A stretch of DNA of 64,000 nucleotides from Elephas maximus indicus (taxonomy: Eukaryota; Chordata; Mammalia; Proboscidea; Elephantidae): the NCBI RefSeq assembly GCF_024166365.1, contig NC_064826.1, forward strand, positions 26,002,001-26,066,000, in the 5' to 3' direction. This document shows positions 36,701 through 64,000 of this stretch, piece after piece. A program made the translations under genes and the position numbers. Position 1 is the stretch's first letter. Every line of letters starts with the position of its first letter. The notes under the pieces were generated by a model, which worked only from the letters and a program-made list of their open reading frames with translations, was not told the origin of the DNA and made no database searches.

Positions 36701-39700
36701 AATTTCGTTGTTATATTTTTTAACTATATAAAGAAGAAAAGTGTTAATTTTCCCTTTACTACTTCTATATAAAAAAAAAAAATAGATTGTGCTAATTCCT
36801 AAAAACTAAATTCAACTGTTTTAGCTGATATTTTTTAAGAAACAACAGAAGGATGATTTTTAAGCTGAGTATTTCCAAATGGAATCATAAAATAAGATCT
36901 GTGTGTAGATATTTCTCTAAAATATAATACGAAGAGGCCTTTTTTCTTGTACTATTTTGTTCTTGTGCATGGTAAAGTGAATTGCTTTTTCAGTATGTTG
37001 TTTGTAAAGGGGAAAAGCATGCCTTCTTTTTTTCTTTTTTTATTTCAGCACCACCACCTCCACCACCCTTGAGGGGAGGGCCGCCACCTCCTCCTCCCCC
37101 TCCACATAGCTCAGGCCCTCCTCCTCCTCCCGCCAGGGGACGAGGCGCTCCTCCTCCTCCGCCTTCGAGAGCTCCCACCGCTGCACCTCCACCACCACCT
37201 CCTTCCAGGCCAGGTGTGGGAGTCCCTCCACCACCACCAAATAGGATGTACCCGCCTCCACCTCCAGCCCTTCCCTCCTCAGCACCTTCAGGGCCACCAC
37301 CACCACCTCCACCTCTGTCAGTGGCAGGATCAGTGGCACCACCCCCACCGCCTCCACCTCCTCCTCCACCCGGGCCACCGCCTCCCCCTGGCCTCCCTTC
37401 TGACGGCGACCATCAAGTTCCACCTCCTGCAGGAAACAAAGCAGCTCTTTTAGATCAAATTAGAGAGGGTGCTCAACTAAAGAAAGTAGAACAGAACAGT
37501 CGGCCAACATCCTGCTCTGGAAGGGATGCGCTTTTAGACCAGATACGACAGGGTATCCAACTGAAATCTGTAAGTAATCTCTTTTTTACATTTAGATCAT
37601 CTGCGTAACGGAGTTCTAAAATAATTTACGTGAAATCTTTGGAAAGTTTTTTTTTTTTTTTTCCCTTTTCTCTTGCCATTTATTTTTATTTAAGTTCTAT
37701 TTTGATAAATGACTGTATCTGTGTAAGCCATACTTCTGTATCATTTATACTTTGAAAGTAGCCATCCCAGTAACCCAGTGCCGTCGAGTCGATTCCGACT
37801 CATAGCGACCCTAGCCATAGACGGTATATAAATGAATGGGCATGATTGTGTTGTAATAAAACTTTATTTATGGACACTGAAATGTAAATACCCATATAAT
37901 TTTCACATGTCACAAATTTTTTTTTTCTCCAGCTACCTAAAAATATAAAAACCGTTCTTAGCTTTCAGGTCATAAAAAAGCAGAGGGCAGTATGGATTCA
38001 GCCCATGGGGCGACCCTGTCCGAAAGCCTACATTCACATGCTTCCTTTAGATGTAGTGTCTGAGTTCCAAGCAGAACACTTGTTCTACAGGGCTTCAGAG
38101 AGGTGATGGATGGTAGATTTTTCTCTGAAGTGAGTGGAGATGAAAGAAGGAAACTACAATTGAAAATTATTTTGCAATACTGTATAGGGAAGTATAGTAA
38201 CCTTTTCTATGTCAAGGAAACCCTGGTGGCGTAGTGGTTAAGAGCTAGGGCTGCTAACCAAGAGGTGGGCAGTTCGAATCCACCAGGCATTCCTTGGAAA
38301 CCCTATGGGGCAGCTCTGCTCTGTCCTGTAGGATCACTGTGAGTCTTTTTGACTCGACGGCAGCGGGTTTGGTTTTTTTGGTTTCTCTGTCAAAAGCTTT
38401 GGCTCTGAGAAGAGTGATGGGTAGAAGACACAGCTAATATAATGAAAATATTTAAACATCAGCATGACAGATTTAAGAAACTTCTGCTTTTTAATCCAAA
38501 GCTAGATCTTTTCTTGGTGTGTATTCAGAACAGGGCTTCAAATTGGGTTCCTTCAGGTTTGAACCCCTGCTGAGAACTTACATTTCTAATGAGTTCCTTG
38601 CTGAGAATTTGCATTTCCACCTGATAATACTGAATCAGAATCTACATTTTAACAAGATCCCCAGATGACTGTTATGTATAACTTCCTGGGAACTTGTTAG
38701 AAAATGAAGCCCTGATTCAGAATGACACTTAGACCAGCCTGTACACAGTCATCTCTGCCTGCTCCCTCCGTTTAATTTCGACCCAGGGTTTCTTAGGATC
38801 GGTTGAAGAGCTATGAACAGTGGTTACGGGCAAAATTAAATTAAATGTCAGCCCAGGTGAACAGCAGGCTTTTATAGTGCTAATTATTTTCAGTTAACTT
38901 TTATGTTAGAATCTATGCTTCTCCCTATGTCCCTTTCTTTCCTCCTCTTTCCCATGCCTAAACTACCTTTTTGTCATCCTGTTCTCGTTCCTCTGTCCCC
39001 CACAACCAGCTTTTGTTTCTTTCTCTCATTCAGCTATGATAAGAGGTGTTTTATTTTTAATAAAGTTGTGTCCTCTTTTCTCAATTTAAAAAAAATGGCG
39101 AGTTAAATTTCATGTTTTCCCCTTCCCACCACTTTTTCCAGCCCAGCTCTACCCACAGATGAAAGCAAACAAACAATCAAAAACACCTGCAACTTGATCT
39201 CTGCATTCCCTTTAGAGGGAAAAATGTCCATACTGAGTGTAGCCTAGTAAGCCATTTTTATCCTGAATAATCACTCCCTTTTTTATTGTATTTAGAGTGT
39301 TATCGTAGAGGGTATAATCAGTGAATTATTGGCATATTATACATTTGATCTAAGCCCACACATTTACTTCATTTTTTAAAAACTAACCATTCTGTGGTTG
39401 AATTTCTCTGGCCATGTTTCTTTGGATTATCAGTATAAATCATCAGTTTTTTCTGTGATGAATACGTCTGACATAAACCCACTGAATTACTTTAAAGAGC
39501 TAGCAAGAGATATGTACCCGTTCACTCACATATATTTTGAATTCCATGTTAATAGTGCCTCAAATAGCATTGTGTTCAAGGAAGTAAGAGCTTTCAAAAT
39601 GTCTTCAATAGCAGTATTGTACCGCTCCTTTATATTCTCAGGTTGTTTGAATGGTGCCTAAGTGTTTCCCGTTGCTGCTGTCATATTTCTTTGAAAGCCA

Positions 39701-42700
39701 CCTCATGCTGAAATTTAAAACTCTGAAACTATTTCTGTTGTCTTTTTCATTTGGGGGCACTTCTACACCAGTAATAGTTAATCTCTCGTCGTGTGCCATC
39801 AAGTTGATTCGGACTCATACACAACCCACAAAAACCTGAGTACTAATGAATGAATCTCTGTCTTATGGGAGTTACTCTGAATGTTTTTAAAAGAAAAAAG
39901 TTTCTTGACCAAACCAAGTACTAGGAATAGATGTGTAAATACCAAAAGGAAAAGTTTGTCCTAATGAAATAATTTTTCTTTGGGAGATAATTTGGAATTT
40001 TTATATTAAATAATTAATTAAAATAAATATTTAAAAACCTTGTATAGTTATTTAATACAGCTGTTCTAGTGCATCTTTAATTATACCAATAATATACCTT
40101 TTATATGGATAATATAAGTCCAAAGACAAAGTGCTACTGATTCTAGTCAAAGTGCATTTAGAGCAATACTTTCCAAATTATGGTTTTTTTTTTCCAGTCC
40201 CCTACAGACTTCCAGTATTTTCTCTCTCTCTCTTTTTGAAATAATAATTTAGTTTTTAGTGAAAGTTTGCACAACGAGTTAGGTTCCCATTTGACAGTTC
40301 CTACACAAATTGTTAAGTGACATTAGTTGTATTTATCACAGTGTCAACAGTCTTTGTGTTCTGTGTTCCCTTTCCAGTACTCTAGTTTCCCTGCCCCCTT
40401 ATCTTCTCATCTTTGCTTTTGAGAAATTGTTGACCATTTGATCTGATACTGATGGTCTTCTTATGGGTAATATCCTTTATTTTGTGTGCCACCCTGCTGT
40501 TTGGCTAAAAGGTGACCCTCAGGGGATAGGCTCTGTTCTAGGTTTAAAGAGTGTCTCAGGGAGTCCTCTGTTCTCTACTGTTCTAGGTTGTTTGGCTTTA
40601 GAAAAAAAAAAATTTTTATAAGAATTATTTCTGCTTCATATTTTTCTCCCATTCTATATGGGACCAGCTATTGTGTCCCCAGTCAGAATGGTCAGTGGCC
40701 ATCTAGTTCTCTTTTTTAATGTGAGTGTTGGAATAAAGATAATTATGTGTAGACTATCATTCTGATAAGTTAAATTTTGATGAGAACGTTTGATACTGAT
40801 TTTTTTCCCCTAAATGTACTTTGTGGGAGACAGAAGTGCTTTACTAAAAAGGTAGTTAGTTGCCTTGTGACACAGGTACATTTTGAAAGCTTCCCAACTA
40901 ATTTCCTTAAAGGGAAGTGATATGCTATGAAATACTCATTTTGAAGTATAATACACATGTATTAATCATATCTTTATACAGTGAAACCTGTGAGACCCGG
41001 AACTCAATGAGACTGCCTTGTTTTTCCAGGTCTCGCAAGTTTCCACCTTTGACAGGGTGCAGCCTTACTTTCGTAATAATTGTCTTAGTGGAAAATATTT
41101 GCGTTTTCCTTCTCTGACAGGTTTCCGCCTTACACGGGTTCTGGCTTTCACAGGTTTCACTATACCATATGAGGTATGACTATATAAAGGTTTATTAGTG
41201 AAGCCAAATTTTTCTAGAAATCTTTTCAGTTAAGTGTGCTTCCTTTCCTGCCTGACAACTCTTAAGAATTTAAATATTATCCCTAGGTGTGAAAATGATG
41301 TTTCTTGATGCTAGTTTATTCATCTAAGACTTTGTATACTGGAATGAACAGAAGTACCTCAGATACAAATCAGGTATTATTCGAAAGCGTGATATGCAAA
41401 TATGACCAAAATTTTGGAAATGTATTGATGGCTTATACATTAAGGAGAAGAGGAGACATTTCTTTAATATTCTTTTAAGGTGGTAGTATGTTTCTTCTTA
41501 ATTTGATTAATTTTGCCCTGGGCTTGCCTACTTTCTTTTCTTTGAAACTAAGAAGTGATGCTAAGAAAGTAAGATTTCCAGAGCCAGAGATTCTTTGTTA
41601 AGGATTCTTCACTGAATATTGCTCGCTTGCTTTTCCAAGGTATCTGATGGCCAGGAGTCTACACCACCTACACCTGCCCCCACTTCAGGAATTGTGGGTG
41701 CGTTAATGGAAGTGATGCAGAAAAGGAGCAAAGCCATTCATTCTTCAGGTATATCTGCATGTGTATATGTAATAAATTTGAATATATGACACTATTTTTT
41801 TATTTTACAACTCAGTCTTTGCTAGCTTTTTCTCTGCTGATTGAGTAACTTACTGATATGGGCTCTGGGGCCTATTTAAGGAAGTTATTGCCTCTATGAC
41901 TAGTCTATCTGAAACTTAACGGATGCCAGAACACCTTAGCTCTAACCGTAAATTTCAGATACTGGTGAGTGTTACAAGGAAAGCTTTTTAAAAATTAGGA
42001 GAATTACTGATAGGAAGAAGGGTTAAATTTTACATAGGATGGCCAAGAAATGCCTCTCTGAGGAGGTGAATTTTGAATGCAGCCTAAATGATGAGAATGA
42101 GTCAGCCAGCCAGAAGGAATAGCTGCTACAAAAGCTCTAAAGTGAGAATAAGTTTGGCATGTTTGAGGGACAGAAAGAAAGTCATGTTACTAGAAACAGT
42201 GAATTGAAGGAGGGGCGTTATGAGACAAGGTGAAAGGGCAAGCAGCAACTGGGCAAATCACGTAGCATCTTGTAGAGTGAAGTAACACGTCTGATTGCAC
42301 TGAAATAGCGGTACTCAGCCCCTGGAGGACTCTTAGAAGGGCAGCAACATGCTATCGCTAAAACTTAGCGCCTACATAATGTCACTCCATTGGGCCTGAG
42401 GCTCTGAGGCAAATGGAGTATAGATTAGCAATGATCCAAGCAAGATGCGATGGTGGTGTGCCGTGTAGCAGTGGAAGTGCCAAAAGCAGCCGACATGGTG
42501 GATTGGGTGTGAAGGATGATGGAAAAGAGGATGATGGAATAATTTCTAGGTTTTTGTCCTAATCACCTGTGAGGATAGAAATGCCATTAATTGAAAGTGG
42601 GAAAAGCAGGATGGAGGGGCAAGAGCCTGCTGGGAAAGGAAATAAAAATTTAGAATCTAGTTTTGAGTTTGAGAATTTGTGTGTGAAGAGTACAGGAAAG

Positions 42701-43446
42701 CATTTGGATTTGCAGTACGCAAGGCTAAAACTCAGAAAGACCAACCCAGACATGAATTTACACGTTAAGAAGTATACAGATTGCAACTTGTTACATAGAC
42801 ACTAAGGAACTAGAACCCAAGTCATCTGACTCCTGTTCAGGAACAGAGTATCCAGTAAGCAAGGTAATCACAGGCTTACTTACTAATCTGTAGTGAACAA
42901 TTTCACATTTTTTCACCACATCAGAGATACTGCTTCTAGGTATGGCTGTCATCTGTCTCTCTCCTAACCCTTCAGCACCTTCCTATTGAATCGAAGCCTC
43001 TTTTCAAATGTACAGTCCTTAACAGGGATGGATGACCCAGTAAGCCAGGTAGCCACTAATCTGTAGTGAACAATTTCACAATGTGGTGTGAAACCCGTGT
43101 GAAATTGTTCACTACAGATTAGTAAGCAAGCACAAGTAAGCTCGTGCTTACCTTGCTGATGAGATAATCCGCCCCTGCTCGTATTCTAAAATTCAATTCA
43201 CTGTCACACTCTGGATTTATTTCATTAGATTCATTTTAAACTATCTTAGTAACTAGATCCTTTCTGGAGTCAAATGATGTGTAATTCAGGAGTTAACTAA
43301 TGGGAGAAACCACCCAAGAATTATGTAATGTTATTTTATTTACATATAATGTTTTAATTGTTCATCTTGATCATTTTTGTCTAGATGAGGATGAGGATGA
43401 AGATGACGAAGAAGATTTTGAGGATGATGATGAATGGGAAGACTGA
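12874..43446 (+). CDS. WASL: WASL (N-WASP), spliced coding region, exons 2-11 (5' partial)
   Basis: Neural Wiskott-Aldrich syndrome protein activates the Arp2/3 complex downstream of CDC42 and PIP2 and drives branched actin assembly at membranes. Ten exons (135, 87, 97, 24, 169, 43, 154, 521, 109 and 62 nt of coding sequence) join in frame with consensus GT/AG junctions to give 466 residues plus stop. Adding the 39 residues expected from exon 1 gives 505, the human length. Domain order is WH1/EVH1 (to about residue 138), basic region (about 186-200), CRIB/GBD (about 203-274), proline-rich region (277 to about 395), two WH2 motifs, central helix and acidic tail ending EWED. Exon 1 with the start codon and promoter is outside the window. 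No frameshift or premature stop is seen, so the gene looks functional. The paralogue WAS is excluded by the two WH2 motifs and the near-identity to N-WASP as remembered. Confidence 0.97.
13755..13925 (+). repeat. MIR-like remnant
   Basis: ctgggccttagcgtctttat, ttgtaaaatgggatgacttt and aggattaaatgagattta follow the MIR order. Confidence 0.5.
14555..14652 (-). mobile_element. AfroSINE, 5'-truncated
   Basis: Only the 3' half: cccattgccctcgattggac, tagtgacccataggacagag, agggcttccaaggca. Confidence 0.85.
15062..15148 (+). CDS. WASL: WASL exon 3 (WH1 domain)
   Basis: Codes residues 85-113 ([14 protein letters not shown] through TFAGD) in phase 0, with acceptor ttttttcag and donor gtaagt. It continues the WH1 beta-sandwich. 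The [11 protein letters not shown] segment is typical of N-WASP and WASP. Confidence 0.97.
15835..16110 (+). mobile_element. L1 LINE 3' end fragment
   Basis: Shares with 1-480 the segments gacaggcccgtaaaacaa (approximately), gggcacaccagcccaggggc (approximately) and the terminal aatgagaaactagtt-like block before an A/T-rich tail near 16095. Confidence 0.7.
16150..16195 (+). mobile_element. AfroSINE tail fragment
   Basis: taagtcaaaatcgactcgat then ggcagtggg and a T-run: the last 40 bp of the SINE only. Confidence 0.7.
16687..16783 (+). CDS. WASL: WASL exon 4 (end of WH1 domain)
   Basis: Codes residues 114-145 plus the first base of codon 146 ([17 protein letters not shown] through RRQRKS), then donor gtaact. 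It contains the C-terminal helix of the WH1 domain and a basic end. It leaves phase 1, matched by the next exon. Confidence 0.97.
16835..17042 (+). mobile_element. hAT-type DNA transposon fossil
   Basis: gaaacacagctatgttcatt, catattgtctgtgaccgtgt, gactgcaaagcctgaaatac and gaaaaagtttgctgatcccc follow the order of the copy at 58150-58495. Begins about 50 bp after exon 4. Confidence 0.65.
18620..18690 (+). mobile_element. AfroSINE, 3' part only
   Basis: ttctactctgtcctataggc, tcgctatgagtcggaattga, ctggacggcactgggg and a T/G-rich tail. Confidence 0.85.
19560..20150 (+). repeat. L2 LINE 3' region
   Basis: aaaacatagattagatcatg, tacatgatccagcccctgac, tgctcattccagtccagcct and agatgtccactcaggtatca are in L2 order. 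Ends about 90 bp before the microexon. Confidence 0.6.
20243..20266 (+). CDS. WASL: WASL exon 5, a 24-nt microexon
   Basis: Acceptor ctaacag and donor gtaagc enclose only 24 nt. Spliced between phase-1 neighbours it gives EKKRDPPN plus the first base of a glycine codon, matching the known N-WASP linker after WH1. The exon length is a multiple of three, so skipping it would keep the frame and remove eight residues. Confidence 0.93.
20501..20598. repeat. 49-bp tandem duplication
   Basis: Units 20501-20549 and 20550-20598 begin gatatcttaattttgtattc and end gaacctgtacaa. They differ at one base (ttaactaag versus ttaattaag). Confidence 0.97.
21403..21608 (-). mobile_element. AfroSINE variant
   Basis: gttagttgccatcaggtctg tail, gtagatctgtacttcatagg middle and gcaccacccaggggcttc head. 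The tail also resembles the RTE end. Confidence 0.85.
21745..21830 (+). repeat. MIR 3' part
   Basis: ggggattaaatgaggtaatc, gcatagtgctagtacatagt and aggtaataaatgctagttag. Confidence 0.55.
21850..22075 (-). repeat. MIR
   Basis: ttatagatgaggaaactggg, cagaaaggtaacttgttcaa and ctggccccttaaccactatg. Confidence 0.7.
22288..22397 (+). mobile_element. AfroSINE, incomplete
   Basis: gctctggctgctaaccaaaa, ggaaaccctatggagcagtt, tctactctgtcctatagggt; the final tail is missing. Confidence 0.85.
22599..22757 (-). mobile_element. AfroSINE
   Basis: cattgagtcgatttcgactc, atagcgaccctatggaatag, tgcttaaccactgcgccacc. Confidence 0.9.
22993..23034 (+). repeat. Tandem 21-bp duplication with paired CTCF-core-like motifs
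   Basis: Two identical 21-bp units (22993-23013, 23014-23034), each ending in tcactaggtggcag. This fits the published CTCF core CCASYAGRKGGCR at all but the first base. Function is inferred only. Confidence 0.6.
23520..23665 (+). repeat. MIR remnant
   Basis: actaattgtgagattttagg, cagatgacctgactcttcta and cattttcatcatttgtaaaa-like blocks. Confidence 0.5.
25155..25415. repeat. LTR-like interspersed remnant, family not determined
   Basis: Blocks tcccaagaccaccctcaggg, gctaggaggactcatagga and acaatttattacagcaaaag resemble a common mammalian LTR-type repeat from memory. There is no coding part. Confidence 0.35.
25925..26101 (+). mobile_element. AfroSINE immediately upstream of WASL exon 6
   Basis: gagccctgatggcacagtgg head, gggactccttggaaacccta, agtcagaatcgactcgacag tail and a T-run. 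Its end is 52 bp from the exon 6 start, within branch-point distance. Confidence 0.92.
26154..26322 (+). CDS. WASL: WASL exon 6 (linker, basic region, start of CRIB)
   Basis: Completes Gly154 and codes residues 155-209 plus two bases of Gln210. It holds the lysine-rich PIP2-binding block ([15 protein letters not shown], about 186-200) and the start of the CRIB motif, ADIGTPSNF. Acceptor is tttcag and donor gtaagg. Compared with the human protein as remembered, FYGPQ reads FYGSQ here. Confidence 0.96.
26323..26943 (+). other. WASL: WASL intron 6
   Basis: 621 bp; holds a MIR-like - strand remnant at about 26640-26790. The open frame running into exon 7 (26720-27043) is read-through of intron sequence. 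Confidence 0.9.
26640..26790 (-). repeat. MIR-like remnant
   Basis: gacagataaggaaatgggtg then tagcagagccaggtctagga, as in an inverted MIR. Confidence 0.45.
26944..26986 (+). CDS. WASL: WASL exon 7 (CRIB motif)
   Basis: A 43-nt exon that completes Gln210 and codes [14 protein letters not shown] (211-224), the CDC42-contacting half of the CRIB motif. His211 and His214 of the conserved HxxH pattern are intact. Acceptor cttcag ends at 26943; donor gtaagt follows. Confidence 0.96.
26987..28088 (+). other. WASL: WASL intron 7
   Basis: 1102 bp of AT-rich DNA with a GT dinucleotide run at 27721-27749. No other feature recognised. Confidence 0.9.
27721..27749. repeat. (GT)n microsatellite
   Basis: Fourteen GT units in WASL intron 7. 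Confidence 0.95.
28089..28242 (+). CDS. WASL: WASL exon 8 (GTPase-binding / autoinhibitory domain)
   Basis: Codes residues 225-275 plus one base of codon 276 ([16 protein letters not shown] through NELRRQ). This helical GBD packs against the C-terminal central helix to hold the protein inactive. Tyr256, the Src-family phosphorylation site in VIYDFIEK, is present. Acceptor gttatag; donor gtaact. Confidence 0.97.
31527..31675. mobile_element. Small non-autonomous DNA element with inverted ends
   Basis: Left end ctaccgtattttttgcaaat and right end (reverse complement) ctgccgtatttttacagaaa match through the ATAACATG block. The element is 149 bp. No clear target duplication is seen, so the superfamily is uncertain. 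Confidence 0.5.
32515..35780 (-). mobile_element. Near-full-length RTE-type LINE, decayed
   Basis: Read on the - strand, this 3.26-kb element has an N-terminal apurinic-endonuclease fragment ([14 protein letters not shown] at about 35200), a linker ([13 protein letters not shown]), a reverse transcriptase segment ([15 protein letters not shown] at about 33960) and a C-terminal segment ([19 protein letters not shown] through [13 protein letters not shown] at about 33100-33230). This is the domain order of RTE/BovB LINEs. The frame is broken many times and no intact protein remains. It carries an internal A-run at 34719-34739 and an 80-bp tandem duplication at 35382-35541. Its 3' end at 32515 is similar to the AfroSINE tail. 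Confidence 0.88.
36152..36305 (-). mobile_element. AfroSINE, diverged
   Basis: cctgttgccatcaagtcagt, ccccataggatagtaggaac, gctctttaaccactgtgccg. Abuts the Tigger-like element. Confidence 0.82.
36313..36471 (-). mobile_element. Tigger-like non-autonomous DNA element, copy A
   Basis: Ends tagtaaaacctgcaaaag and (reverse complement of right end) cagtgacagctctgagagc. Flanked by TA at 36311-36312 and 36472-36473. Homologous to 40979-41162 and 54750-54928. Confidence 0.7.
37049..37569 (+). CDS. WASL: WASL exon 9 (polyproline region, WH2-1 and most of WH2-2)
   Basis: The largest exon (521 nt) codes residues 276-449 after acceptor tatttcag. It carries repeated runs of 5-11 prolines separated by short basic or Ser/Gly linkers, which bind profilin and SH3 proteins. 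It then carries WH2-1 ([17 protein letters not shown]) and WH2-2 up to QGIQLKS. Donor gtaagt falls directly before the final Val of WH2-2. It is strongly GC-rich against AT-rich introns, which yields long spurious antisense frames. Several linker residues differ from the remembered human sequence, as expected for low-complexity sequence. Confidence 0.97.
37768..37813 (-). mobile_element. AfroSINE tail fragment
   Basis: cccagtgccgtcgagtcgat and tccgactcatagcgacccta; sits at the edge of an hAT fossil. Confidence 0.8.
37814..37925 (-). mobile_element. hAT-type DNA transposon fossil fragment
   Basis: gccatagacggtatataaat, gaatgggcatgattgtgttg and taataaaactttatttatgg are the reverse of the copy at 58150-58495. 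Confidence 0.6.
38216..38385 (+). mobile_element. AfroSINE, well preserved
   Basis: Starts accctggtggcgtagtggtt, has gagctagggctgctaaccaa and ttcgaatccaccaggcattc (tRNA-like box B), and ends ttgactcgacggcagcgggt plus T-rich tail. Imperfect flanking repeat tctatgtcaa / tctctgtcaa. Confidence 0.95.
38531..38714 (+). mobile_element. hAT-like (MER5-type) non-autonomous DNA transposon, copy 1
   Basis: Terminal inverted repeats cagggcttcaaatt / cagggcttcatttt (reverse complement of the right end). Flanked by perfect 8-bp duplications attcagaa at 38523-38530 and 38715-38722, the size made by hAT transposases. Confidence 0.88.
39786..39830 (-). mobile_element. AfroSINE or RTE tail fragment
   Basis: gtgtgccatcaagttgattc and ggactcata only; too short to tell SINE from RTE. 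Confidence 0.5.
40236..40715 (-). mobile_element. Older L1 LINE 3' end
   Basis: Begins with the reverse of an L1 tail (tttagtgaaagtttgcacaa, compare gtgaaagtttacaaatcaag at 6112) and ends with ggccatctagttct, similar to the other L1 copies. It is more diverged than those at 6076 and 52540. Confidence 0.6.
40979..41162 (+). mobile_element. Tigger-like non-autonomous DNA element, copy B
   Basis: 184 bp. Begins cagtgaaacctgtgagaccc and ends ggctttcacaggtttcacta, flanked by TA on both sides (40977-40978, 41163-41164). Best-preserved inverted ends of the three copies. Confidence 0.75.
41640..41748 (+). CDS. WASL: WASL exon 10 (end of WH2-2 and central helix)
   Basis: Codes residues 450-485 plus one base of codon 486. 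Val450 completes WH2-2, then a Pro/Thr linker ([16 protein letters not shown]), then the central amphipathic helix [17 protein letters not shown] that contacts Arp2/3 and, in the closed state, the GBD. It ends with SS, the casein-kinase-2-type serines. Acceptor ttccaag; donor gtatat. Confidence 0.96.
41935..42690. repeat. Ancient interspersed repeat, family not determined
   Basis: Blocks ctctctgaggaggtgaattt, gatgagaatgagtcagccag and gcatcttgtagagtgaagta recall a long ancient mammalian repeat. I cannot name it without a library. Confidence 0.4.
42853..43160. repeat. Foldback structure with perfect 26-bp inverted repeat
   Basis: Arms 43055-43080 and 43098-43123 are exact reverse complements around a 17-nt loop. 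A further direct copy of the left arm (42883-42908) and flanking cagtaagcaaggtaatcaca / gtgcttaccttgctg blocks extend the inverted symmetry to about 56 bp per side. Confidence 0.92.
43385..43446 (+). CDS. WASL: WASL exon 11, acidic tail and stop codon
   Basis: After acceptor gtctag the exon codes residues 486-505: twenty residues, almost all Asp/Glu, ending FEDDDEWED and TGA at 43444-43446. The penultimate-region Trp inserts into Arp2/3. Only the coding part of the terminal exon is given here; the exon continues as the 3' UTR. Confidence 0.97.
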
Positions 43447-44612
43447 TCAATATATATTATATATATATATTTTTAAGGTGAAATACTAAACACTACTTTT
43501 CTGTCTATGGATTCTGTAAAGTTATCATGTAAATGTTCTACCAATTTGCTGTATATTTTTGTTGCCTTTTTTGCTTTTTTTGTAATTAATCTGTGCAATA
43601 CCTCATTTAATCTGTAAAGGTTTGTCATATCTTCAACAAAGCTACTCCCTGTTATTGTGTGCAAGTTTACACCAGAATGCTCACTTTATTTGTGAATACT
43701 TTTCATTCCATCAACAAGGGAGCTTGAATATTATGAGACTGACAAAAACCTTAATGTAATTTAGTTATAATGCCAGAAGGAAAACACTATTTTCATACCC
43801 TACTTTTTCTGTACCTAAATTTTCTTATTAAAATCTAGTATAGCACTACATTCTTTTTTAAGTGATGCAAACCTTAGTTTATGTAGCTCCTTCATTTTGA
43901 GTACAATGGTACATGAATGTTGAAGCTGATACATCGCGTCGTTCTTCAGACATCACTACACTGATGAGTTTCTGAAATTTTAGCAATACGCTCTACATAA
44001 AATCCCTGCCGAGATGCCAGTGGCGAAAAGCAGCCACACGCCTCTTACAGCAATATTGCCTGTGATTGTACAGCAGTGGCATTGGGAGGCTGGGATCAAA
44101 AGGAGCCCTCACGTACCTGCACTTGACTTAGGTGATTTTTATGCTTTACCAAATGTTGCAGGCTCTTTGGCAAACCAATTTTTTAAGCATTTTTGGTATT
44201 ATTCTGAAACAGCCAAGTTATTTAAGTTGTCGGAGCTTGAGGCATTATGGCCAGAGTTTCACTCTATATGACCTGAAGGGCTATGCATTGTGGTTACTCC
44301 AATATTTGGTTAAAAATACCATAAAAATCAGAACATGATAAAAAATGTTGTGGAATTAAGTATTTGTATTTTTCAGCTTACATGGGTTGAGATATTCAGA
44401 AATAGCAACCATGAAAGTCTAATCTAGAAAATTGCAAATAAATGCCCTATAATGCTAAACCTAATATGTTATATATATATATATATATATTTTGATAACT
44501 TCTCAAGGTTTTTGTCACATGTCAGGTGAAGGGTTACATTTTTCTTAAAAGATTGGTCATCTTAATGTCAAATTTCTTGCGACACATAACTGAATGATAG
44601 ATTTTTTTTTTT

Positions 44613-44618
44613 AATAAA
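44613..44618 (+). promoter_or_regulatory. WASL: Possible proximal polyadenylation signal of WASL
   Basis: AATAAA in ttaataaaattttacaacc, after a T-rich run. It would give a 3' UTR of about 1.2 kb. Use of this site cannot be shown from sequence. Confidence 0.4.
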
Positions 44619-53143: not shown

Positions 53144-53254
53144 CACTGGACTACTTTTTGATGATCGTAATGAAGCCATTTAAAAGGGCTTCCAAAAGTC
53201 CCAGGGCCATGCTTCTCTTACTTTGAAAAAAATTATACTTAAAATATCCATCAT

Positions 53255-55910: not shown

Positions 55911-56639
55911 TTCCAATTGTCAGTCCTTCGCTTGTCCGAATATTCTGTGGACGACTATAGGCTACACAGCCAACCATGACAACAACCTGAGTGCTGCCCC
56001 TAGGTCACACATGGAAAAGAGATGGATTCTTTGGGGAGGAGGACCAGTGAGAATAGATGCAGATATTCTTAGAATTTGGCCCTAAAATGTACACACAGGG
56101 AAATGTCTACTGGCTGCTTCTTAGTGATAGGCTCCCTGGAGCCTCTTAGCCTCCAAGAGTAGGGCCTGCCCTGCCCTAGACCCTGGGGCCAATCTCCTCA
56201 TTGTCACTGAGTAGCTAATTATTACCATCTATTTTTTTTTTATTCAAATGTGTGTATTTATTTATTTTTTTTTATGTATATGGCATAACTATGACATACA
56301 ATCCCTGACCTCCAGTATACAATGCAGTAGGACAGGAGGAATTAGCTAGGTACACAAATAATATAATGCAAGGCAAAATGTGGTAGGCACCAAAAGAGAA
56401 GTTTGAGCAAAGAACAATGAGAATTCAGAGGATTGGAACAGATAAATTCATGGGAGAACTGGGCCTTGAAAGAAGAGTAGTTTATTGACCCAGGAAGATG
56501 GGAAAAGAATATTCTGAACTGAAGAGACAATGTAAGCAAACACATAGAAGTGGAAAGTCAGGATGTTGCTTGAGGATTAAGACCTGAATCTCATGCTGAC
56601 TAAAGACTAAAGGTGTTGAATGAACTAGAGGCATTTTCT

Positions 56640-57300
56640 ATCATGCCACATGACCCTCAAATCCTTACCTCAGGAACACATCCCACCCCCACAATTCTAG
56701 ACCCACACATCCAAATGGATAGGCACATCAAACACAATATATTTAAAACTCGTTTTCCTCCTCCAAAACCTGCTCCTCCTACATTCCCTGTCCCATTTTG
56801 TGGTACCATTATCCACCTAATTGGTCAAGCCAGGAATATGGGTGTCAACCTAAGACGCTTCTCTTTTATTGCCCTTGCCGACTACCTATAACCGGTAACC
56901 AAATTCTGGGGAGTATATGCTTTCTTTATTTCTGCTTTACCTATTCTGTCTCCTCTACACTTACGCAGCTTTCACAGGTCTGCATTCCTTGTTCTTAGAT
57001 CATTTCGTTGGTCTCCACCTGGTCTTCCTGCCACCAACGTGGACCTCGCCGAGTCCATCTTCCTTTCTGTTACACAGTCATATTTTTAAAACCTATAGAG
57101 GGCACTGGGTTGTTTTTTTTTTTTTTTTTAATATAAACATCATGTCATTCCTCCTCTTGAAATCCTTTGATGCCTCCCCCATGGCTTTCATGATTAAGTC
57201 CACATTCTTTAGTTAACAGGAAGTTCTTTAGGACACTCTTCTGTGAACCTTAGCCCAACCCCCAACTCTCTCCCATCCTTGCTTTTTTATTCAGCCTAAA
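56640..57300 (+). repeat. L2-like block
   Basis: atcatgtcattcctcctctt, tgatgcctcccccatggctt and gattaagtccacattcttta are the L2 3' pattern. Upstream pieces are weaker. Confidence 0.45.
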
Positions 57301-58149
57301 AAATGTCACAGACTTTTAGAAGTTTGTCTTACAAATTCATTCCTCTGTGATTCAGACAGGCATGCAATTCGGCTGAGAGAAAGCTGGTAAACATGGCAGT
57401 TGAGTTAAAACCCAGTTTCCAGCTTGGTGTACTGCAGTGATGGGTCACACCTGCTTATCTAGGAGACAGTTTTTTAGCTCTGATTTTCAGCCAATCGTTT
57501 CTTCTCTGGACTTTGTGGAATAGTTAAAACTTAGAATAACCAAATACTACGGATTCAGTTGGAACAGAACAATGGGAGGCTAATCAAAATAATCTAAATA
57601 TCCAACAATTGTTGAAATTACTTAAATAAAATGTGATGTATAATGGTATGTATGCTGTCTTCCCTTTTTGTAGAAAAAATATGTGTGTTCAAATATGCAT
57701 TAATTAGCCTTTAAAAAGACCTTTAAAAAGATATACAGTAAAGGGTTATCAGTAATCGTTCTATATGGGTGGGATAATGGGGATTCATTATGTTCTGCTT
57801 ATCTGTATGTTCTGATTTTTTCCTAATAATCATGTACTATTTTTGTTTTATTTTTGTAGTAAGCAAAGACCATACAGGAAAACCATCAAATAGCCCTATT
57901 TTTAATCCACCAAAATGACCAATACCAGGGGAAAAAATGACCAAAATATTAACATTTTTATCAAATTGTTGTTTTTACAGAATTACATTAAGCCCTGTGA
58001 TTTTCAGCTAATTTCTATACGATTCTGGTCCCTCAAGCTGAAATGTACTTCCCCAGTCCCCATGGCCATCATTCATTCCTCTATTCCTTAAAAATACAGA
58101 TCAGTGTCACCTTCTCCGAGAAGCTTTCCTCGACCCCTTAGTTTTAAGT

Positions 58150-58495
58150 CAAGGGTCTGTGGTAAACTGTGGCCCTCAGGCTGCATCCATCTAACACCTA
58201 TTTTTGACAGCCTGCACAGCAAGAATAGTTTTGCCTTTTTAAACAGTTGAAAAAATTTCAAAAGAAGATAAGTCTTTCACCACACATGAAAATTACATGA
58301 AATTTGAATTTTAGTGTCCATAAATTATGCGTTACTAGAACACAAACATGCTTATTCATTTTCGTATCGTCGATGGCTGTTTTTGCCCAGCAATGGCAGA
58401 GTCAAGTTGCCACAGACACTGTATGATCCACAAAGTCTAAAATATTTACTCTGGCTTTTTGTAGAAAAAGTTTGCTAATCCCAGCTTTAGATGGC
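58150..58495 (+). mobile_element. hAT-type DNA transposon fossil, longest copy
   Basis: gtaaactgtggccctcaggc at the left, aacacaaacatgcttattca and gatggctgtttttgcccagc in the middle, and gaaaaagtttgctaatccca at the right. The right end resembles copies near 17020. Confidence 0.7.
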
Positions 58496-58559
58496 CAGCC
58501 TTCTCCATAGGACCCTACACCTGCCTCTGACTCAGCTCTTACCACACATTCTGGAAAGG

Positions 58560-58775
58560 CTGGTTCCCTTCAGATGCCTCAGTCCCAGGGGGGCACTTGG
58601 TGAGTAAATGAGTGGATGCAGGAAGGAATGGTGAACGATCCCTCCATTAGGATGTAAGTTACTGGAGGACAGGGGTTTTGCCTCCTTTTTTCATTGTGTA
58701 TCCTCAGTGCCTAGAAGACTCTCTGGACCATTGTAGGTACTCAGAAGATATTTGTGGAAGTTGTTAAGTCCATGA
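58560..58775 (+). repeat. L2 3' end remnant
   Basis: actggaggacaggggttttg, tgtatcctcagtgcctagaa and gtaggtactcagaagatatt. Confidence 0.55.
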
Positions 58776-58847
58776 AGATTGGTTCAATGTTTCTGAATTT
58801 TATAATTCTTAGGTGAATTCTTGGTCTTTTTATGCCATGCTATTTGG

Positions 58848-58895
58848 TCCCTGTGAGTCAGAATTGAGTTGACTGCAATGAGTTTTTTGGTTTAT
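58848..58895 (+). mobile_element. AfroSINE tail fragment
   Basis: ccctgtgagtcagaattgag, ttgactgcaatgag and a T-rich tail just upstream of a full copy. Confidence 0.75.
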
Positions 58896-58904
58896 TTGGT
58901 GATT

Positions 58905-59060
58905 GGGTATCCCTGGTGGTGCAGTAGTTAAGAGCTAGGCTGCTAACCAAAAGGTTGGCAGTTTGAATCCACCAGCTGCTCCTGGAAACCCTATGGGGTA
59001 GTTTTGCTCTTCCTGTAGGTTCGCTATGAGTTGGAATAGACTGGAGAGCAACAGGTTATT
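58905..59060 (+). mobile_element. AfroSINE
   Basis: tatccctggtggtgcagtag head, aggctgctaaccaaaaggtt, cctggaaaccctatggggta, tcgctatgagttggaataga tail. Confidence 0.93.
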
Positions 59061-60115
59061 GCTGCATTTGATGATTGTTGCAAATACAGTTCCACCTTTC
59101 GAGCCTCAGAGAAACAAAGAAGAGACAGTTTTAACTTTGTCACGGAAGGAAGTAGTTATGAGGTCTTTTCAAGGACATATTGATTTAGCCCAGTGTTTAA
59201 TGTGGCTCAATCTATGCACTTCAGCTTGTTTTTACCTCTTCCTTTCACTCACTTCTAGCAATGAGCTCAGGGCAGATGTTAAATCAAGGTCCTGCTGACA
59301 CCGAGTTATTAAATACCCCATGGCAGTGGGCTGGTACAACAGAGTGAAACTCAGCATTCTGGCCCCATTTCAAATCAGGACGAGGTGTACTTTAGGAGAT
59401 TAATGTGCACATGTAAATCATAGCCTAAACACTTCATCTGGTCTTGGATGGCCTCTCTCCCAGTGAGTTGAAAGCTCTTTATAGACATGAGGTAGTTTTC
59501 ATACCAGCTCTATGAGTTTGCAGGGAAGATGAAGATTCCTGTCCTCAGCTAAATAATGATGGTCGTAATGCTTTGCGTGTTTATTGCACTACGGCCTGAC
59601 GTAACATGTTCTAGCCATGAGGAAGTGTTTTTCCTTGATGACAAATATGCCTTCTTAGTATCTAATCATATCATACTTGTCTCATTATGAGATTTGTACT
59701 ATTTAGTCTTACAGATTGAGCGTGAGGGTCATAGCTTCACATAAATGGTCTGAAGTCTGGTGGGAGTGTGCTGTTCTCTCCTGAGGCCCAAAGAGTTCCC
59801 CACATGACAGCCTTTGAAAAACTAAAGGAGGGAATGTTGGCCTGCCAATCGTTCACTGAGGCGAAAAGGCCTGGCCAGTCTCCCCAGCCCTCCTAGCTCC
59901 TGGCAGCATGGGTGTCAGCCCTTCCCTCCTCACTGGGGAGGGCAAGCTGCCATGTACCCACTTCCTGAGTTTTTGCATGATTTTACCCATGACCCAGTTT
60001 ATCAGCAAACATTTCCCCCTTTGCCTCATCTCTTTCCCTTCCTCTTAGAAGAGCCATGACCTCCCACACAAAGGATCAGGGGAGCGGAAGTTCTGCCTTG
60101 GCTTTCTGTTCTAAG

Positions 60116-60117
<2 letters not shown>

Positions 60118-60146
<29 letters not shown>
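60118..60146. repeat. (CA)n microsatellite
   Basis: About 14 CA units followed by a degenerate continuation. Confidence 0.95.
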
Positions 60147-60148
<2 letters not shown>

Positions 60149-60384
60149 TGCACACAGGTGCACACACAAATTCTTGTGTGCAACTACTTCAAAGAGGCCG
60201 TTAAAAACCTGAATTTTCCCTTGCATTTCTTTGAACAGCAATAATGAGCATTGGTTGTGGACATCAATGGGAAGAGGTGAAAATAATGTCGTTACTAAGG
60301 AAACTGAGATCCCCACTGTTATTTTAAGAGTGGGGAGTCTTTGGAAGGCTTGAGTCTGGTTGGAGGCTGAGAGGGGCAGTGCTG

Positions 60385-60535
60385 TGGAAGGGGCATGGGC
60401 TTACAGTCACAGATAGTTTCATATGCAACCTTTTCATCTCTGAGTCTCAGTTTCCTCATCCATAAAATGGGAATAGCATATTTTAAGGTCATTGTAAGAA
60501 TTACATGAAACAACTTAGCTAAAGTCTCTGGTAAA
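60385..60535 (+). repeat. MIR
   Basis: ctgagtctcagtttcctcat, ccataaaatgggaatagcat, ttgtaagaattacatgaaac. Confidence 0.7.
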
Positions 60536-61154
60536 TTCTAAGAGTTCAAAAAATGTCAGTCCCTCCCTGAATGGAGTCAGGGCACTAACTTAGCTTATGG
60601 ACCTCTGGAACCTTCTTCAAGTGATCCTATCAGTTGTCTTTATAGAAAAAGAAAATAGCCGAACAATATAAACAGACTAAAAGAAGCAGACCCAAGAACT
60701 ACTGGAGAAAATTTCTAGTAGAACACGATCGTCTTGACTGGAAACACTCTCAAAAGCTCTGTAAGCAAACAAGTATTGAATGTGTGGCCCAGAAGAACTT
60801 GCCAAGACCACTGTCACAATCTTTAGAACACAAAGGATGTGTCACTAATCGTAGTTAATACAAAGGACTTTAGAAGAGATTTATAGCTTTCATCAATTTG
60901 AGTGGCGCATTAGAGTGGAGGGAAGGTAATCTCTGAAATGTCTCTCTCCTGTTTGAGTTCAGACCTTTCTTGAGTGATGGGGATTGCAGACACACATGGG
61001 CAAGTCCAGGGGTGTGTGTTGTAGATGCTGGCATCACCGCTATTTCATAATGTCCAGAGAGGCTGAGACCCACTGGACTAAGGCTTTTTCAAAGAGAGTC
61101 CAAAAGGAATCTTCGGCACCAGCCAAAGTTAGCTCTAAATTTAGGGAGTCCCTA

Positions 61155-61312
61155 ACCCAAACCCAGGGCCGTTGAGTCAATTTCAACTCATACCGACCCT
61201 ATAGGATGGAGTAGAACTGCCCCACAGTTTCCAAGGAGCGCCTGGCAGATTTGAACTGTCAACCACTTGGTTAGCAGCCGTAGCACCTAACCACTACGCC
61301 ACCAGAGTTTCC
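61155..61312 (-). mobile_element. AfroSINE nested at the head of another SINE
   Basis: Flanked by perfect 12-bp repeats agggagtcccta (61143-61154, 61313-61324). The right-hand repeat is the first 12 bp of the SINE at 61313. Body is canonical (gccgttgagtcaatttcaac, gttagcagccgtagcaccta). Confidence 0.95.
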
Positions 61313-61514
61313 AGGGAGTCCCTAGGTGGTGTAAATAGTTAATGAGCTTGAATCGAAAGGTTGGAGGTTCAAGTCCACCCAGAGGCACCTTGGAAGAAAG
61401 CCCTGGTGATCTACTTCTGAAAAATCAGCTATCAAAAACCCTATGGAGTACAGTTCTGTCGATACACATGGGATCACAAGTTGAAACTGACTCGATGGCA
61501 ACTGGTTTTTTATC
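61313..61514 (+). mobile_element. AfroSINE variant
   Basis: Starts agggagtccctaggtggtgt, has ctggtgatctacttctgaaa, ends aactgactcgatggcaactg. The older of the nested pair. Confidence 0.92.
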
Positions 61515-61987
61515 TTCCTGTAACCCCTTAGCACTTACTACCTTCCACCAAGAAACTTCCTATATTTAAAAATTGTTTCCCCTTCCACAAATAGTTGATT
61601 TTACTTACAAATAATTGAATTGACTTCTGGGTGCCTATCAGACTTACGTGAATTTAGGAGAGTCAGCTGGCATACTGGCTTTAACATCAATGCATCCAGG
61701 ATGATAAGGGCCACACTGGGGTCTTTTTCCAACCTTTTCTCTCACTACACAAGAGCCTTTTAAGAAAGTTCTTGATTCTAATCCTTGAGAAAGATATCTC
61801 ATCGGATTTTCTTGGACAAGAAGAAACAAAGACAGGAAAATGCTCAGAACCCAAGCCCTTTTTGGGTGAGAATGTAATATTTTTAATATTTGGCAATGTT
61901 ACATACACACCTGACAGAAGTGAGTATCAACTCACAGAAAAATATTAGTTTGACTTAAAAAAAAGAAAAAAAAAACTTCAATCCAAA

Positions 61988-61993
61988 TTTATT
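61988..61993 (-). promoter_or_regulatory. LMOD2: LMOD2 polyadenylation signal
   Basis: TTTATT on +, AATAAA on -, about 315 nt after the LMOD2 stop. It is followed on the - strand by a long T-rich tract (+ strand A-run at 61958-61976), a good downstream element. Confidence 0.6.
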
Positions 61994-62120
61994 GGGATTA
62001 CAAAAATAAAAGCACAATTTCATTAACTCCTTACAGCTCAACATTACGAAGGCCTCCAGAGATACGAAAGCCTCTTTAGTAACTGCTGCTTGCCAATACA
62101 AATCTCATGACATAAAAAAG

Positions 62121-62126
62121 TTTATT
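62121..62126 (-). promoter_or_regulatory. LMOD2: Alternative LMOD2 polyadenylation signal
   Basis: AATAAA on the - strand (TTTATT on +) about 185 nt after the stop, followed by T-rich sequence. A possible earlier site; usage unknown. Confidence 0.4.
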
Positions 62127-62308
62127 TTCATATTTACAAAAGAAATAAACTGATAGTTTACTTAAATTCTCTCCAGAATTAAAGGCTGAAGCTACTTTTT
62201 AAAGTCAGGGAACATCTCAAATTGAAGAAAGTATTTTAGAAAGATCTCACGAGGCTTTTCATTTGATACCACTGAACAATTCTGCGTCCTCTGGTAAAGA
62301 TCGTGTTT

Positions 62309-62335
62309 TTATCGTAGAGCTTCTGGAACTTCCAC
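62309..62335 (-). CDS. LMOD2: LMOD2 exon 3, eight codons and stop
   Basis: On the - strand, tgtag is followed by codons for VEVPEALR and TAA. This joins in phase 0 to exon 2 ending QLRR, giving the C-terminus [12 protein letters not shown]. The tiny exon holds the last residue of the LKKV-type motif of WH2. It is too short to be found as an open frame and was placed from the splice junction. Confidence 0.92.
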   Translation of the reverse strand: MEVPEALR

Positions 62336-64000
62336 CTACAAAAACAGGGGATTTTCTTCAATAAAACAACACAAGTGATAAAATGAAAACTATCTCTAGG
62401 GTATCCGTGAGCCGGAATCACCTCGATGGCAACCACCACCAATGTCGTTTGCAGTATTCTCTGAGAGGACTCAGATATAGATTGGTTATTGTCAATATTA
62501 TCAATTAGGTTCTAAAATCAATTACAACTCTGTGGTAAAAGCTTAGACAAGCGATGCATCCTCGTGGAATGTAGATTATAAGGCCCGATTTTCTTATGGA
62601 AATGGGTTGTTTTAAATATTTTGGAGCTTCTTAAAAGGGGCATGGCTTTTACAGGACTAGGATGCCAAGAAGGTGGCCCCGGGACACCTCTCAAGTGAAA
62701 AGGTGCTCATTCATTCCTGTGCCCGCTCCTCATGTTTCACGATTGTACGCTTGCTCCCGCATACTAGAATACTAACAAATCTTTTGAGAGGGGGACTTGG
62801 TTACCGTCATAGAGGGCGGCCGACCCATCTACTGCATCTGTGCCCGAATGCCTGCCCTCGGGTTACTCACCCGCCTCAGCTGTTTTATGCTGCTCCCGCG
62901 GATTGCTTCCATAAGGTTGTCATGGGCTGACCTCTGCGGGGGAGAAGTTTGGGAACTGTCTTCCATTTTTTTCTCTGGCACGGACCTCAGGGAATTTTTT
63001 ATTTCCTTTAGGACATTGTTTGGCTGTTTCTTAACCTTTTTCCCTTTTTTCTTTTTCTGTCCATTGTGTAGTGCCCGTTGGGCACTCTCCTGTTGCTTGA
63101 TGACCTCGGCGATGTTTCGGGTGATTAACTTTTTCTCTGGGAGTGGAGGAGGAGGAGGTGGAGGTGGCGCAGACAGTGGCAGTGCTTGGGGGGGAGGAGG
63201 CGGAGGGGGAGGGGGAGGCGGGGGAGGGGGAGGAGGAGGCGTGGCCACTGGGGACAGAGGCCGGCTCCTCACAGTTTGGCCTTTCTTGGGAAGTTTTGGG
63301 GATGACCAAGGAGAGTGCCTGGGAGATGTGTAAGGTGAAGAGCCAGGAGTTCCTCTTTGCCAGACTTTGGTCCTAAGGTTGGCTCCTGCGTCACATCCCT
63401 CTTGCTGTTTCTGCTCCTGCATCCGCTTTTGCCTCTGTTTATCCATATTCCTGGTCAGAATGCTCGTCATGCTCATTCGTGGTCCTGGGAGCTCAAAATG
63501 GTAGCCCAGCCGCAGCAGCGTGGTGTTCTCCTTCAGCAGCTTGACGATCTCCATCTCCACCTGGCTGCCCATGATGTGCCTCTGGTTGTGGAAACGCAGC
63601 TCGCTGAGCACCGTGTTGTGCTGCAGGGCTCTCATGATGGCCAGGATCCCCTTCCCCGTGACGAAGTTGGACTCGATGTTGATGCTGGTGATGTGCTCGT
63701 TGACTCGGAGCATCTTCGCGATGGCCACAGCGGCGTTGTCGTCAGCGCGCGTGTTGGCCAGGCTGAAGGTCTTCACCACCGTGTTGTCCTTGAGGGCTTC
63801 AGCAAAGCGGGTGAGAGTCTGCGATGTGATGTTCTCTATATTGTTCAAATTGACTTCTATGGTGTCAGGGTCATTGTTTTTAATCTTTTCCAAAGCATCC
63901 TCGATAACTGTGGGATTTCCACAAGGGTGAATGGCGGCAGGAGACTCTGTGTTCCTTCCACTGTGGCCGTTGGTCAAGTTTATGTTTTCTATTTGACTTT
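62309..64000 (-). CDS. LMOD2: LMOD2 (leiomodin-2), 3' part: exon 2 (partial) and exon 3
   Basis: Leiomodin-2 is a striated-muscle, tropomodulin-related protein that nucleates actin and lengthens thin filaments at pointed ends in sarcomeres. The frame is open to the window edge, so the N-terminal part (tropomyosin/actin-binding site 1 and the acidic stretch) is missing. The visible 384 or so residues of an expected about 550 show, in order, the leucine-rich repeat actin-binding domain, a Glu/Gln/Lys-rich helix, a Ser/Pro linker, two polyproline runs, a lysine-rich segment and a C-terminal WH2 motif. Exon 2 joins exon 3 through a GTGAGT donor at 62870-62865 and an acceptor ending at 62336. LMOD1 and LMOD3 are less likely because WASL is the neighbour of LMOD2 in mammals. 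Confidence 0.93.
62336..62870 (-). other. LMOD2: LMOD2 intron 2
   Basis: A 535-bp intron with donor GTGAGT and acceptor AG. It contains a 40-bp AfroSINE tail remnant at 62398-62440 on the opposite strand. The remainder shows no recognisable feature. Confidence 0.88.
62398..62440 (+). mobile_element. AfroSINE tail remnant in LMOD2 intron 2
   Basis: gggtatccgtgagccggaat and cacctcgatggcaacca without the rest of the SINE. Confidence 0.65.
62871..64000 (-). CDS. LMOD2: LMOD2 exon 2 (continues beyond window)
   Basis: Reads from the right edge ([16 protein letters not shown]) through the LRR domain ([16 protein letters not shown], then [44 protein letters not shown] and [13 protein letters not shown]), typical of tropomodulin/leiomodin. 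It then has an EQKQQEG helix end, [16 protein letters not shown], polyproline (codons within about 63143-63246), [17 protein letters not shown], and WH2 [18 protein letters not shown] ending at 62871. TTG at 63975-63977 is an internal Leu codon, not a start. The frame would read on into intron residues (VSNPRAG) but the GTGAGT donor ends it. Confidence 0.94.

What the first reader, a model, noticed from the sequence alone, without database searches (positions are those of the whole stretch)
37500..62924. Same intron position and phase inside the WH2 motif of two neighbouring actin nucleator genes
In WASL, the phase-0 intron after exon 9 splits WH2-2 as QGIQLKS|V. In LMOD2, the phase-0 intron after exon 2 splits WH2 as SSIKQLRR|V. 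Both fall exactly before the last residue of the LKKV-type motif, and in both genes the exon before the intron carries a polyproline tract followed by WH2. The genes are convergent neighbours about 16 kb apart. Leiomodins are tropomodulin relatives that gained a C-terminal proline-rich plus WH2 extension. The shared boundary fits origin of that extension by duplication of a polyPro-WH2 exon from a WASP-family gene, perhaps locally. The alternatives are a common phase-0 exon boundary of many WH2 modules, or coincidence.
Basis: partly seen in the sequence, partly recalled or inferred. Interest (0 to 1): 0.72.

Follow-up and report, generated by a model that had tools for sequence, protein, structure and literature searches.

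The report
Leiomodin tail resembles Cordon-bleu exons
Two neighbouring actin-regulating genes are cut by an intron at the same spot in a small actin-binding motif, but a third gene, Cordon-bleu, is cut there three times and matches leiomodin better, so leiomodin's tail more likely shares its origin with Cordon-bleu than with its neighbour WASL.

Summary
Eight have this split: WAS, WASL WH2-2, LMOD1-3 and all three COBL WH2s. Seven do not: WASL WH2-1, WIPF1-3, two MTSS-type genes and one unassigned gene. So it is neither peculiar to WASL-LMOD2 nor universal; it marks one class of WH2 exon. Within it the LMOD core and loop length are nearest COBL WH2-2/3, not WASL WH2-2 or WAS. COBL also ends like LMOD: polyPro, WH2 split at LKK|V, tiny last exon (predicted [33 protein letters not shown]). 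I favour exon homology between the LMOD and COBL tails over local duplication from WASL. Limits: short motifs, one genome, LMOD3 ambiguous when flanks are added; direction and age untested; WASF1-3, COBLL1 and outgroups not searched because the genome tool was mostly unavailable.

The parts
37049..37569 (+). WASL exon with polyproline tract, complete WH2-1 and WH2-2 up to QLKS
   Evidence: acceptor TTTATTTCAG before 37049 (counted by me), donor gtaagt after 37569
37477..37488 (+). LKKV of WASL WH2-1, not interrupted (internal control)
   Evidence: CTAAAGAAAGTA within one exon
37570..41639 (+). WASL phase-0 intron inside WH2-2 (QLKS|V)
   Evidence: gtaagt...ttccaag
41640..41748 (+). WASL next exon [10 protein letters not shown]... 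(last residue of WH2-2 and C region); right end read by eye before gtatat
   Evidence: matches N-WASP chains 6uhc, 2vcp
43385..43446 (+). WASL last coding exon, acidic region [20 protein letters not shown] (first base of the first codon lies in the previous exon)
62336..62870 (-). LMOD2 phase-0 intron 2 inside WH2 (QLRR|V)
   Evidence: gtgagt...tttgtag
62309..62335 (-). LMOD2 terminal coding exon VEVPEALR*
   Evidence: matches the Leiomodin-2 C-terminus in 9zzj and 4rwt
62871..64000 (-). LMOD2 exon 2 (cut by window end): tropomodulin-like LRR region, polyPro, linker and WH2 up to QLRR, all in one exon
   Evidence: 376-codon open frame in the window part
63138..63240 (-). LMOD2 polyproline tract (ends approximate)

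Best explanation
The phase-0 intron just before the last residue of L-K/R-x-V is an inherited mark of one class of WH2 exon, found here in WASP (WAS, WASL WH2-2), Cordon-bleu (all three WH2s) and the three leiomodins. Within that class the leiomodin tail is most closely related to the C-terminal end of Cordon-bleu: a phase 0-0 exon carrying polyproline and WH2 that ends at LKK, then a tiny terminal exon starting with V. The likely mechanism is that a tropomodulin-type gene acquired such a COBL-type last exon pair in a chordate ancestor. Because such exons begin with V or T and end after LKK in phase 0, joining one to another keeps the frame and rebuilds a working LKKV motif at the junction. 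The shared split and the COBL-like layout are shown here in one genome (the COBL terminal exon is a prediction). The capture event, its direction (COBL to LMOD, the reverse, or both from a third gene) and its date are inferred.
For: Base-level split in WASL and LMOD2. WAS: QLNK|gtgagg and next exon CTGCAG|ACT = T; independently, human WAS splice variants c.1338+1 and +2 place an exon end at codon 446 (passage of PMC9304939) and chain 2a3z reads QLNKT. LMOD1: LKQLKK, terminal exon ACAG|GTGGAAGTGCCC = VEVPKLLQ*. LMOD3: VAYLKP|gtaagt and ACAG|GTACAGCTGCCC = VQLPKELE*. COBL: LRK|gtgaat, LKK|gtaaga, LKK|gtaact; downstream exons start TAG|ACT and TAG|GTG, and the best terminal candidate is CTGCAG|GTACCCTTGCTTGTGTGA = VPLLV*. 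Core similarity: the best non-LMOD match by z is COBL2 for LMOD1 (7.9), COBL3 for LMOD2 (6.7), COBL2 for LMOD3 (6.6); WASL2 gives 1.9, 1.9, 3.0, WAS 1.0, 0.7, 0.7. phmmer of the LMOD2 WH2 against PDB lists two leiomodin sequences and then only two Cordon-bleu/MIM chimera peptides, these at a non-significant E of 0.14.
Against: Motifs of 15-18 residues give weak statistics. COBL WH2-1 is not closer than WASL WH2-1 to LMOD1 (z 3.6 against 4.0) or LMOD3 (0.8 against 4.9). With tail and upstream residues added, LMOD3 is no nearer to COBL3 (z 2.9) than to WASL2 (3.3). WASF1's WH2 (from PDB) scores close to COBL for LMOD2 (z 4.3), and WASF genes could not be searched here. The COBL loop is one residue longer than LMOD's. 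LMOD1's donor in this assembly is not GT. LMOD2's junction is a favourable splice context (rank 3 of 55), so independent intron gain is possible. The VPLLV* exon is one of two candidates under my filter and has no transcript support. Only one species' genome was read; no outgroups.
Confidence: 0.55

Rival explanations
1. Local duplication: the LMOD extension is a copy of the neighbouring WASL polyPro-WH2 exon.
For: Adjacent convergent genes here; a human 7q31 duplication lists NDUFA5, LMOD2, WASL, HYAL4 in that order (passage) and in cattle ASB15, NDUFA5 and LMOD2 lie between IQUB and WASL (passage). Same split and phase. With flanks added LMOD3 matches WASL2 (z 3.3) as well as COBL3 (2.9).
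Against: WASL WH2s have a loop 2 residues shorter and, for the split copy WASL2, lower core similarity than COBL2 and COBL3 in 3 of 3 LMODs. Between the two exons the best protein hit is the WH2 stretch itself (WASL WH2-1, E 0.45) and the best DNA hits are proline-codon repeats. WASL continues into connector and acidic exons, LMOD stops 8 residues on. The WASL exon carries two WH2s. LMOD1 (C23) and LMOD3 (C28) lie on other contigs than WAS (C37).
Confidence: 0.08
2. Independent intron gains: V is coded GTN and K/R codons often end in AG or G, so the motif is a favoured intron insertion site and the three families acquired introns separately.
For: The LMOD2 junction ranks 3 of 55 by exon-side splice preference, with a 9.5% share (frequencies recalled).
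Against: The WASL junction ranks only 28 of 55. A GTN codon after K in WASL WH2-1, WIPF2 (AAGAAG then GTG) and WIPF3 carries no intron. The 8 split copies use one position and phase.
Confidence: 0.22
3. Common ancestral WH2 exon class only: COBL, LMOD and WASP (and perhaps WASF) each inherited the split from an old WH2 exon, with no special tie between LMOD and COBL.
For: The split occurs in three families (8 of 15 copies). [quoted passage not shown] exact base not given). For WASF1, a passage says that variants at c.1482, c.1516 and c.1558 lie either in the last 50 bp of the penultimate exon or in the last exon, without saying which; a junction at K513|V514 (numbering of 4n78) would fit, by my inference.
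Against: The LMOD-COBL similarity in loop length, core and terminal exons goes beyond the class.
Confidence: 0.15

Closest known systems
Cordon-bleu (COBL) WH2-3 exon and terminal exon
   Same: polyPro upstream of WH2 in one exon ending LKK in phase 0; predicted tiny last exon starting with V (VPLLV*); long loop between WH2 helix and LKKV; core z of COBL3 6.6, 6.7, 5.6 to LMOD1, 2, 3
   Different: Loop one residue longer; COBL has three WH2s and its own N-terminal part; the COBL exon is bounded by introns on both sides whereas the LMOD2 tail shares one exon with the tropomodulin-like body
WASL / WAS WH2-CA
   Same: same intron position and phase inside the WH2 next to the CA region; polyPro upstream
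   Different: shorter loop, lower core similarity for WASL2 and WAS, followed by connector and acidic regions; WASL has an extra unsplit WH2-1
WIPF1-3 and MTSS-type WH2s
   Same: WH2 motif
   Different: not split at LKK|V; the motif continues towards NDRSAP; the apparent WIPF donors come about 12 codons later in phase 1, the MTSS-type ones end with a stop in the same exon
Tropomodulins
   Same: LRR/ABS2 region homologous to LMOD2 exon 2 (other matches, named by recall)
   Different: no polyPro-WH2 extension (passages of PMC4571291); their matches fall in several short pieces

Membership tests
Leiomodin (LMOD2) | tropomodulin-like region plus C-terminal polyPro and WH2 | tested here: met
   C-terminal 99 residues match Leiomodin-2 of 9zzj at E 2.8e-48; WH2 profile 17.9 bits, under Pfam's 23.1 cut-off
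Leiomodin (LMOD2) | intron 2 inside WH2 with short terminal exon in all three paralogues | tested here: met
   3 of 3 paralogues; LMOD1 donor is not GT in this assembly
WASP family (WASL) | polyPro, two WH2s, central and acidic regions | tested here: met
LMOD extension as a copy of the WASL exon | closest WH2 relative is WASL, equal loop length | tested here: not met
   best non-LMOD match is COBL2 or COBL3 for 3 of 3 LMOD cores; loop +2 relative to WASL. Against: COBL1 is not closer than WASL1 to LMOD1 and LMOD3
LMOD extension as a copy of the WASL exon | ancestral linkage of LMOD and WASP genes before vertebrate genome duplications | not testable with these tools
   no outgroup genomes; 2R status of the MITF/TFE genes only from a passage, their positions recalled
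COBL-type polyPro-WH2 tail | WH2 split at LKK|V in phase 0, polyPro in the same exon, tiny V-first terminal exon | tested here: met
   COBL's VPLLV* exon is a prediction (CTGCAG acceptor, pyrimidine tract, AATAAA nearby), not transcript-backed
COBL-type polyPro-WH2 tail | sequence closest to COBL beyond the core | tested here: inconclusive
   LMOD1 (z 5.4) and LMOD2 (z 3.9) favour COBL3, LMOD3 does not (2.9 against WASL2 3.3)
Universal WH2 exon boundary | split present in all WH2 copies | tested here: not met
   7 of 15 copies read are unsplit

The most novel reading that the evidence does not exclude
Leiomodins arose when a tropomodulin-type gene captured the last two exons of a Cordon-bleu gene (polyPro-WH2 exon plus its tiny terminal exon), and WH2 exons of the COBL, LMOD and WASP families descend from one phase-0 exon whose boundaries cut the LKKV motif, so that exon joining itself rebuilds the actin-binding motif.
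Probability: 0.35. Interest if true: 0.66.

Novelty: new member of a known kind. Interest (0 to 1): 0.5.

Why it matters
The origin of the leiomodin tail is not explained in the passages I saw; one paper says that Lmod came from Tmod by duplication in the ancestor of tunicates and vertebrates (PMC10605842). A COBL-like exon pair gives a specific, checkable origin. It also splits the WH2 copies read here into two exon classes (LKK|V in phase 0, versus unsplit, most of these with DRSAP or similar after the motif) that can be scored in any genome and could help to order the history of actin nucleators where the 17-residue motif is too short for trees.

Tried and rejected
(1) WASL as donor: see above. 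(2) Whole-exon similarity between the WASL and LMOD2 exons: the WH2 stretch (E 0.45), a second weak protein hit (E 1.7) and, in DNA, mainly proline-codon repeats. (3) A second, decayed WH2 upstream in LMOD2 ([12 protein letters not shown]), suggested by that second hit: the WH2 profile does not match it. (4) Universal boundary: excluded by 7 unsplit copies. (5) Literature: searches listed no paper that by title or abstract start compares WH2 intron positions between LMOD and COBL or WASL (listings, and passages of 14 papers in all, seen; of two papers also one section each). One search yielded only the 2R status of the MITF/TFE genes; (Xp11.23 genes) found 0 papers. (6) Ancestral WAS/WASL-LMOD linkage through FOXP/MITF-type regions is a recalled idea and was not tested. 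(7) WASF1-3, COBLL1, SPIRE and other WH2 genes were not reached: the WASF query did not complete in all 11 tries.
Full report
Check of the observation. Both splits are in the sequence exactly as described. WASL reads ...GGTATCCAACTGAAATCT|gtaagt at 37569, with the next exon GTATCTGATGGC from 41640. LMOD2 (minus strand) reads ...AAACAGCTGAGGCGG|gtgagt at 62871, with the terminal exon GTGGAAGTTCCAGAAGCTCTACGATAA from 62335. Both are phase 0 and fall before the last residue of L-K/R-x-V. WASL's own first WH2, in the same exon, is not split.

How surprising is one such match? I scored 55 junctions per motif. With exon-side splice preferences (recalled frequencies) the LMOD2 junction ranks 3 of 55 and takes 9.5% of the weight, the WASL junction 28 of 55 with 0.2%, and the unused site in WASL WH2-1 9 of 55. 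A single coincidence between two genes is thus roughly a 2-10% event, found after the fact. A survey was needed.

Survey in the window's own genome. The window lies at G000:C12:26002001-26066000 of a 3.4-Gb genome in 64 contigs. A WH2 profile search at E 0.001 gave WASL plus seven other loci; an LMOD2 LRR query gave LMOD1 and LMOD3; a COBL query gave COBL. The survey therefore covers only what these three searches reached. Names rest on comparison by eye with PDB chains for WIPF1 (2a41), an MTSS1-like gene (2d1k), WAS (2a3z) and COBL (4jhd) and on recall for WIPF2, WIPF3, MTSS2, LMOD1 and LMOD3. LMOD3's WH2 spacing also fits the published residues R543 and L550 (passage).

Result, 15 WH2 copies, none dropped. 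Split before the last residue in phase 0 (8): WAS QLNK|T, WASL WH2-2, LMOD1 QLKK|V, LMOD2 QLRR|V, LMOD3 YLKP|V, COBL WH2-1 LRK|T, WH2-2 LKK|V, WH2-3 LKK|V. Not split (7): WASL WH2-1, WIPF1, WIPF2, WIPF3, the two MTSS-type genes, and an unassigned polyPro-WH2 gene L007. In WIPF1-3 an apparent donor comes about 12 codons later in phase 1; in the MTSS-type genes and L007 the frame runs to a stop. LMOD1 is counted as split because its terminal exon begins exactly at V, but its donor in this assembly reads TTAAGT instead of GT.

Independent support for WAS comes from human splice variants c.1338+1 and c.1338+2, which put an exon end at codon 446 (passage of PMC9304939); P460S (c.1378) in the same table fits the residue count TPGAPESSALQPPP from T447. 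For WASF1, a passage in PMC8629972 says that the variants at c.1482, c.1516 (R506) and c.1558 (Q520) lie either in the last 50 bp of the penultimate exon or in the last exon, without saying which lies where. In 4n78 numbering R506 is the R of EAIR and V514 follows LRK, so a junction at K513|V514 would fit, but this is my inference and not proof. [quoted passage not shown] the exact base is not given.

Which relative is closest to LMOD? phmmer of the LMOD2 WH2 against PDB lists two leiomodin sequences and two Cordon-bleu/MIM chimera peptides, the latter at E 0.14, not significant alone. In shuffled-sequence tests on the motif core, the best non-LMOD match is COBL2 for LMOD1 (z 7.9; COBL3 6.6), COBL3 for LMOD2 (6.7) and COBL2 for LMOD3 (6.6; COBL3 5.6); WASL2 gives 1.9, 1.9 and 3.0, WASL1 4.0, 3.1 and 4.9, WAS 1.0, 0.7 and 0.7. 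Results against: WASF1 scores z 4.3 with LMOD2, near COBL; COBL1 gives only 3.6 with LMOD1 and 0.8 with LMOD3, less than WASL1; and with upstream and tail residues added LMOD3 does not prefer COBL3 (2.9) to WASL2 (3.3), while LMOD1 (5.4 against 1.4) and LMOD2 (3.9 against 2.8) do. Length from the first helix leucine to V is 14 in WASL, WAS, WASF1 and WIP, 16 in LMOD2 and 17 in COBL.

Exon layout. COBL's WH2-3 exon starts TAG|GTGTCATCCCTTGCC (V S S L A), carries PPPPPLPP... and ends LKK|gtaact, phase 0 on both sides. About 13.9 kb downstream, cactgcag|GTACCCTTGCTTGTGTGAATACCAATAAAG reads VPLLV* with a polyadenylation-like signal. This was the better of two candidates that passed my filter in the 30 kb fetched and is not transcript-backed. 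LMOD genes end the same way: polyPro, WH2, phase-0 split, then [16 protein letters not shown] or VQLPKELE*. WASL instead continues into connector and acidic exons.

Interpretation. The split marks a class of WH2 exon shared by COBL, LMOD and WASP, and the LMOD tail looks most like COBL's tail. Exons of this class can be phase 0 on both sides, start with V or T and end after LKK, so head-to-tail joining keeps frame and rebuilds LKKV; COBL's own three copies suggest that it happened by exon duplication there. Capture of such a last exon pair by a tropomodulin-type gene is my favoured origin for LMOD. Shown: positions, phases, layout, relative similarity in one genome. Inferred: the capture, its direction and its date. 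[quoted passage not shown]

The neighbourhood. LMOD2 and WASL are neighbours in this genome and are listed next to each other in human (passage) and placed together in cattle (passage). COBL lies on the same contig C12 but 86 Mb away. LMOD1 (C23) and LMOD3 (C28) are on other contigs than WAS (C37). Nothing here shows that adjacency had a role.

Verdict. Observation confirmed; donor reassigned from WASL to a COBL-like gene with moderate confidence; ordinary as biology of introns, but a concrete new lead on leiomodin origin.

Noticed in passing
L027 (G000:C23:10484001-10494000), end of LMOD1 exon 2: The exon 2 donor of LMOD1 reads AAGAAG|TTAAGT instead of GT; the adjoining GT (AAGAA|GTTAAG) would shift the frame of the terminal exon. 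Assembly error, polymorphism or real change is unknown.
   Followed up: partly
window 61170-61310 (minus strand text): A SINE resembling AfroSINE elements (recalled), suggesting an afrotherian mammal; a similar repeat lies in a COBL intron.
   Followed up: no
L001, L002, L008, L004, L006: WIPF1-3 and MTSS-type genes continue after WH2 into NDRSAP and lack the LKK|V split, a second WH2 exon class; the apparent WIPF donors are phase 1 about 12 codons later.
   Followed up: partly
L007 (G000:C28:63019357-63019443): A polyPro-WH2 C-terminal frame SRGALLSSIQNFQKGTLRKAETCDHSAPKIG* that I could not assign; no PDB match better than E 0.56.
   Followed up: partly
window 10949-11051, both strands: mir-544-like match below Rfam's gathering score (62.8 against 66.5 bits), possibly repeat-derived.
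   Followed up: no
window 5590-5761, minus strand: Weak SCARNA7-like match, 32.3 bits against a gathering score of 65.
   Followed up: no
G000:C12: WASL/LMOD2 (26.0 Mb), WIPF3 (91.1 Mb) and COBL (112.3 Mb) lie on one contig.
   Followed up: no
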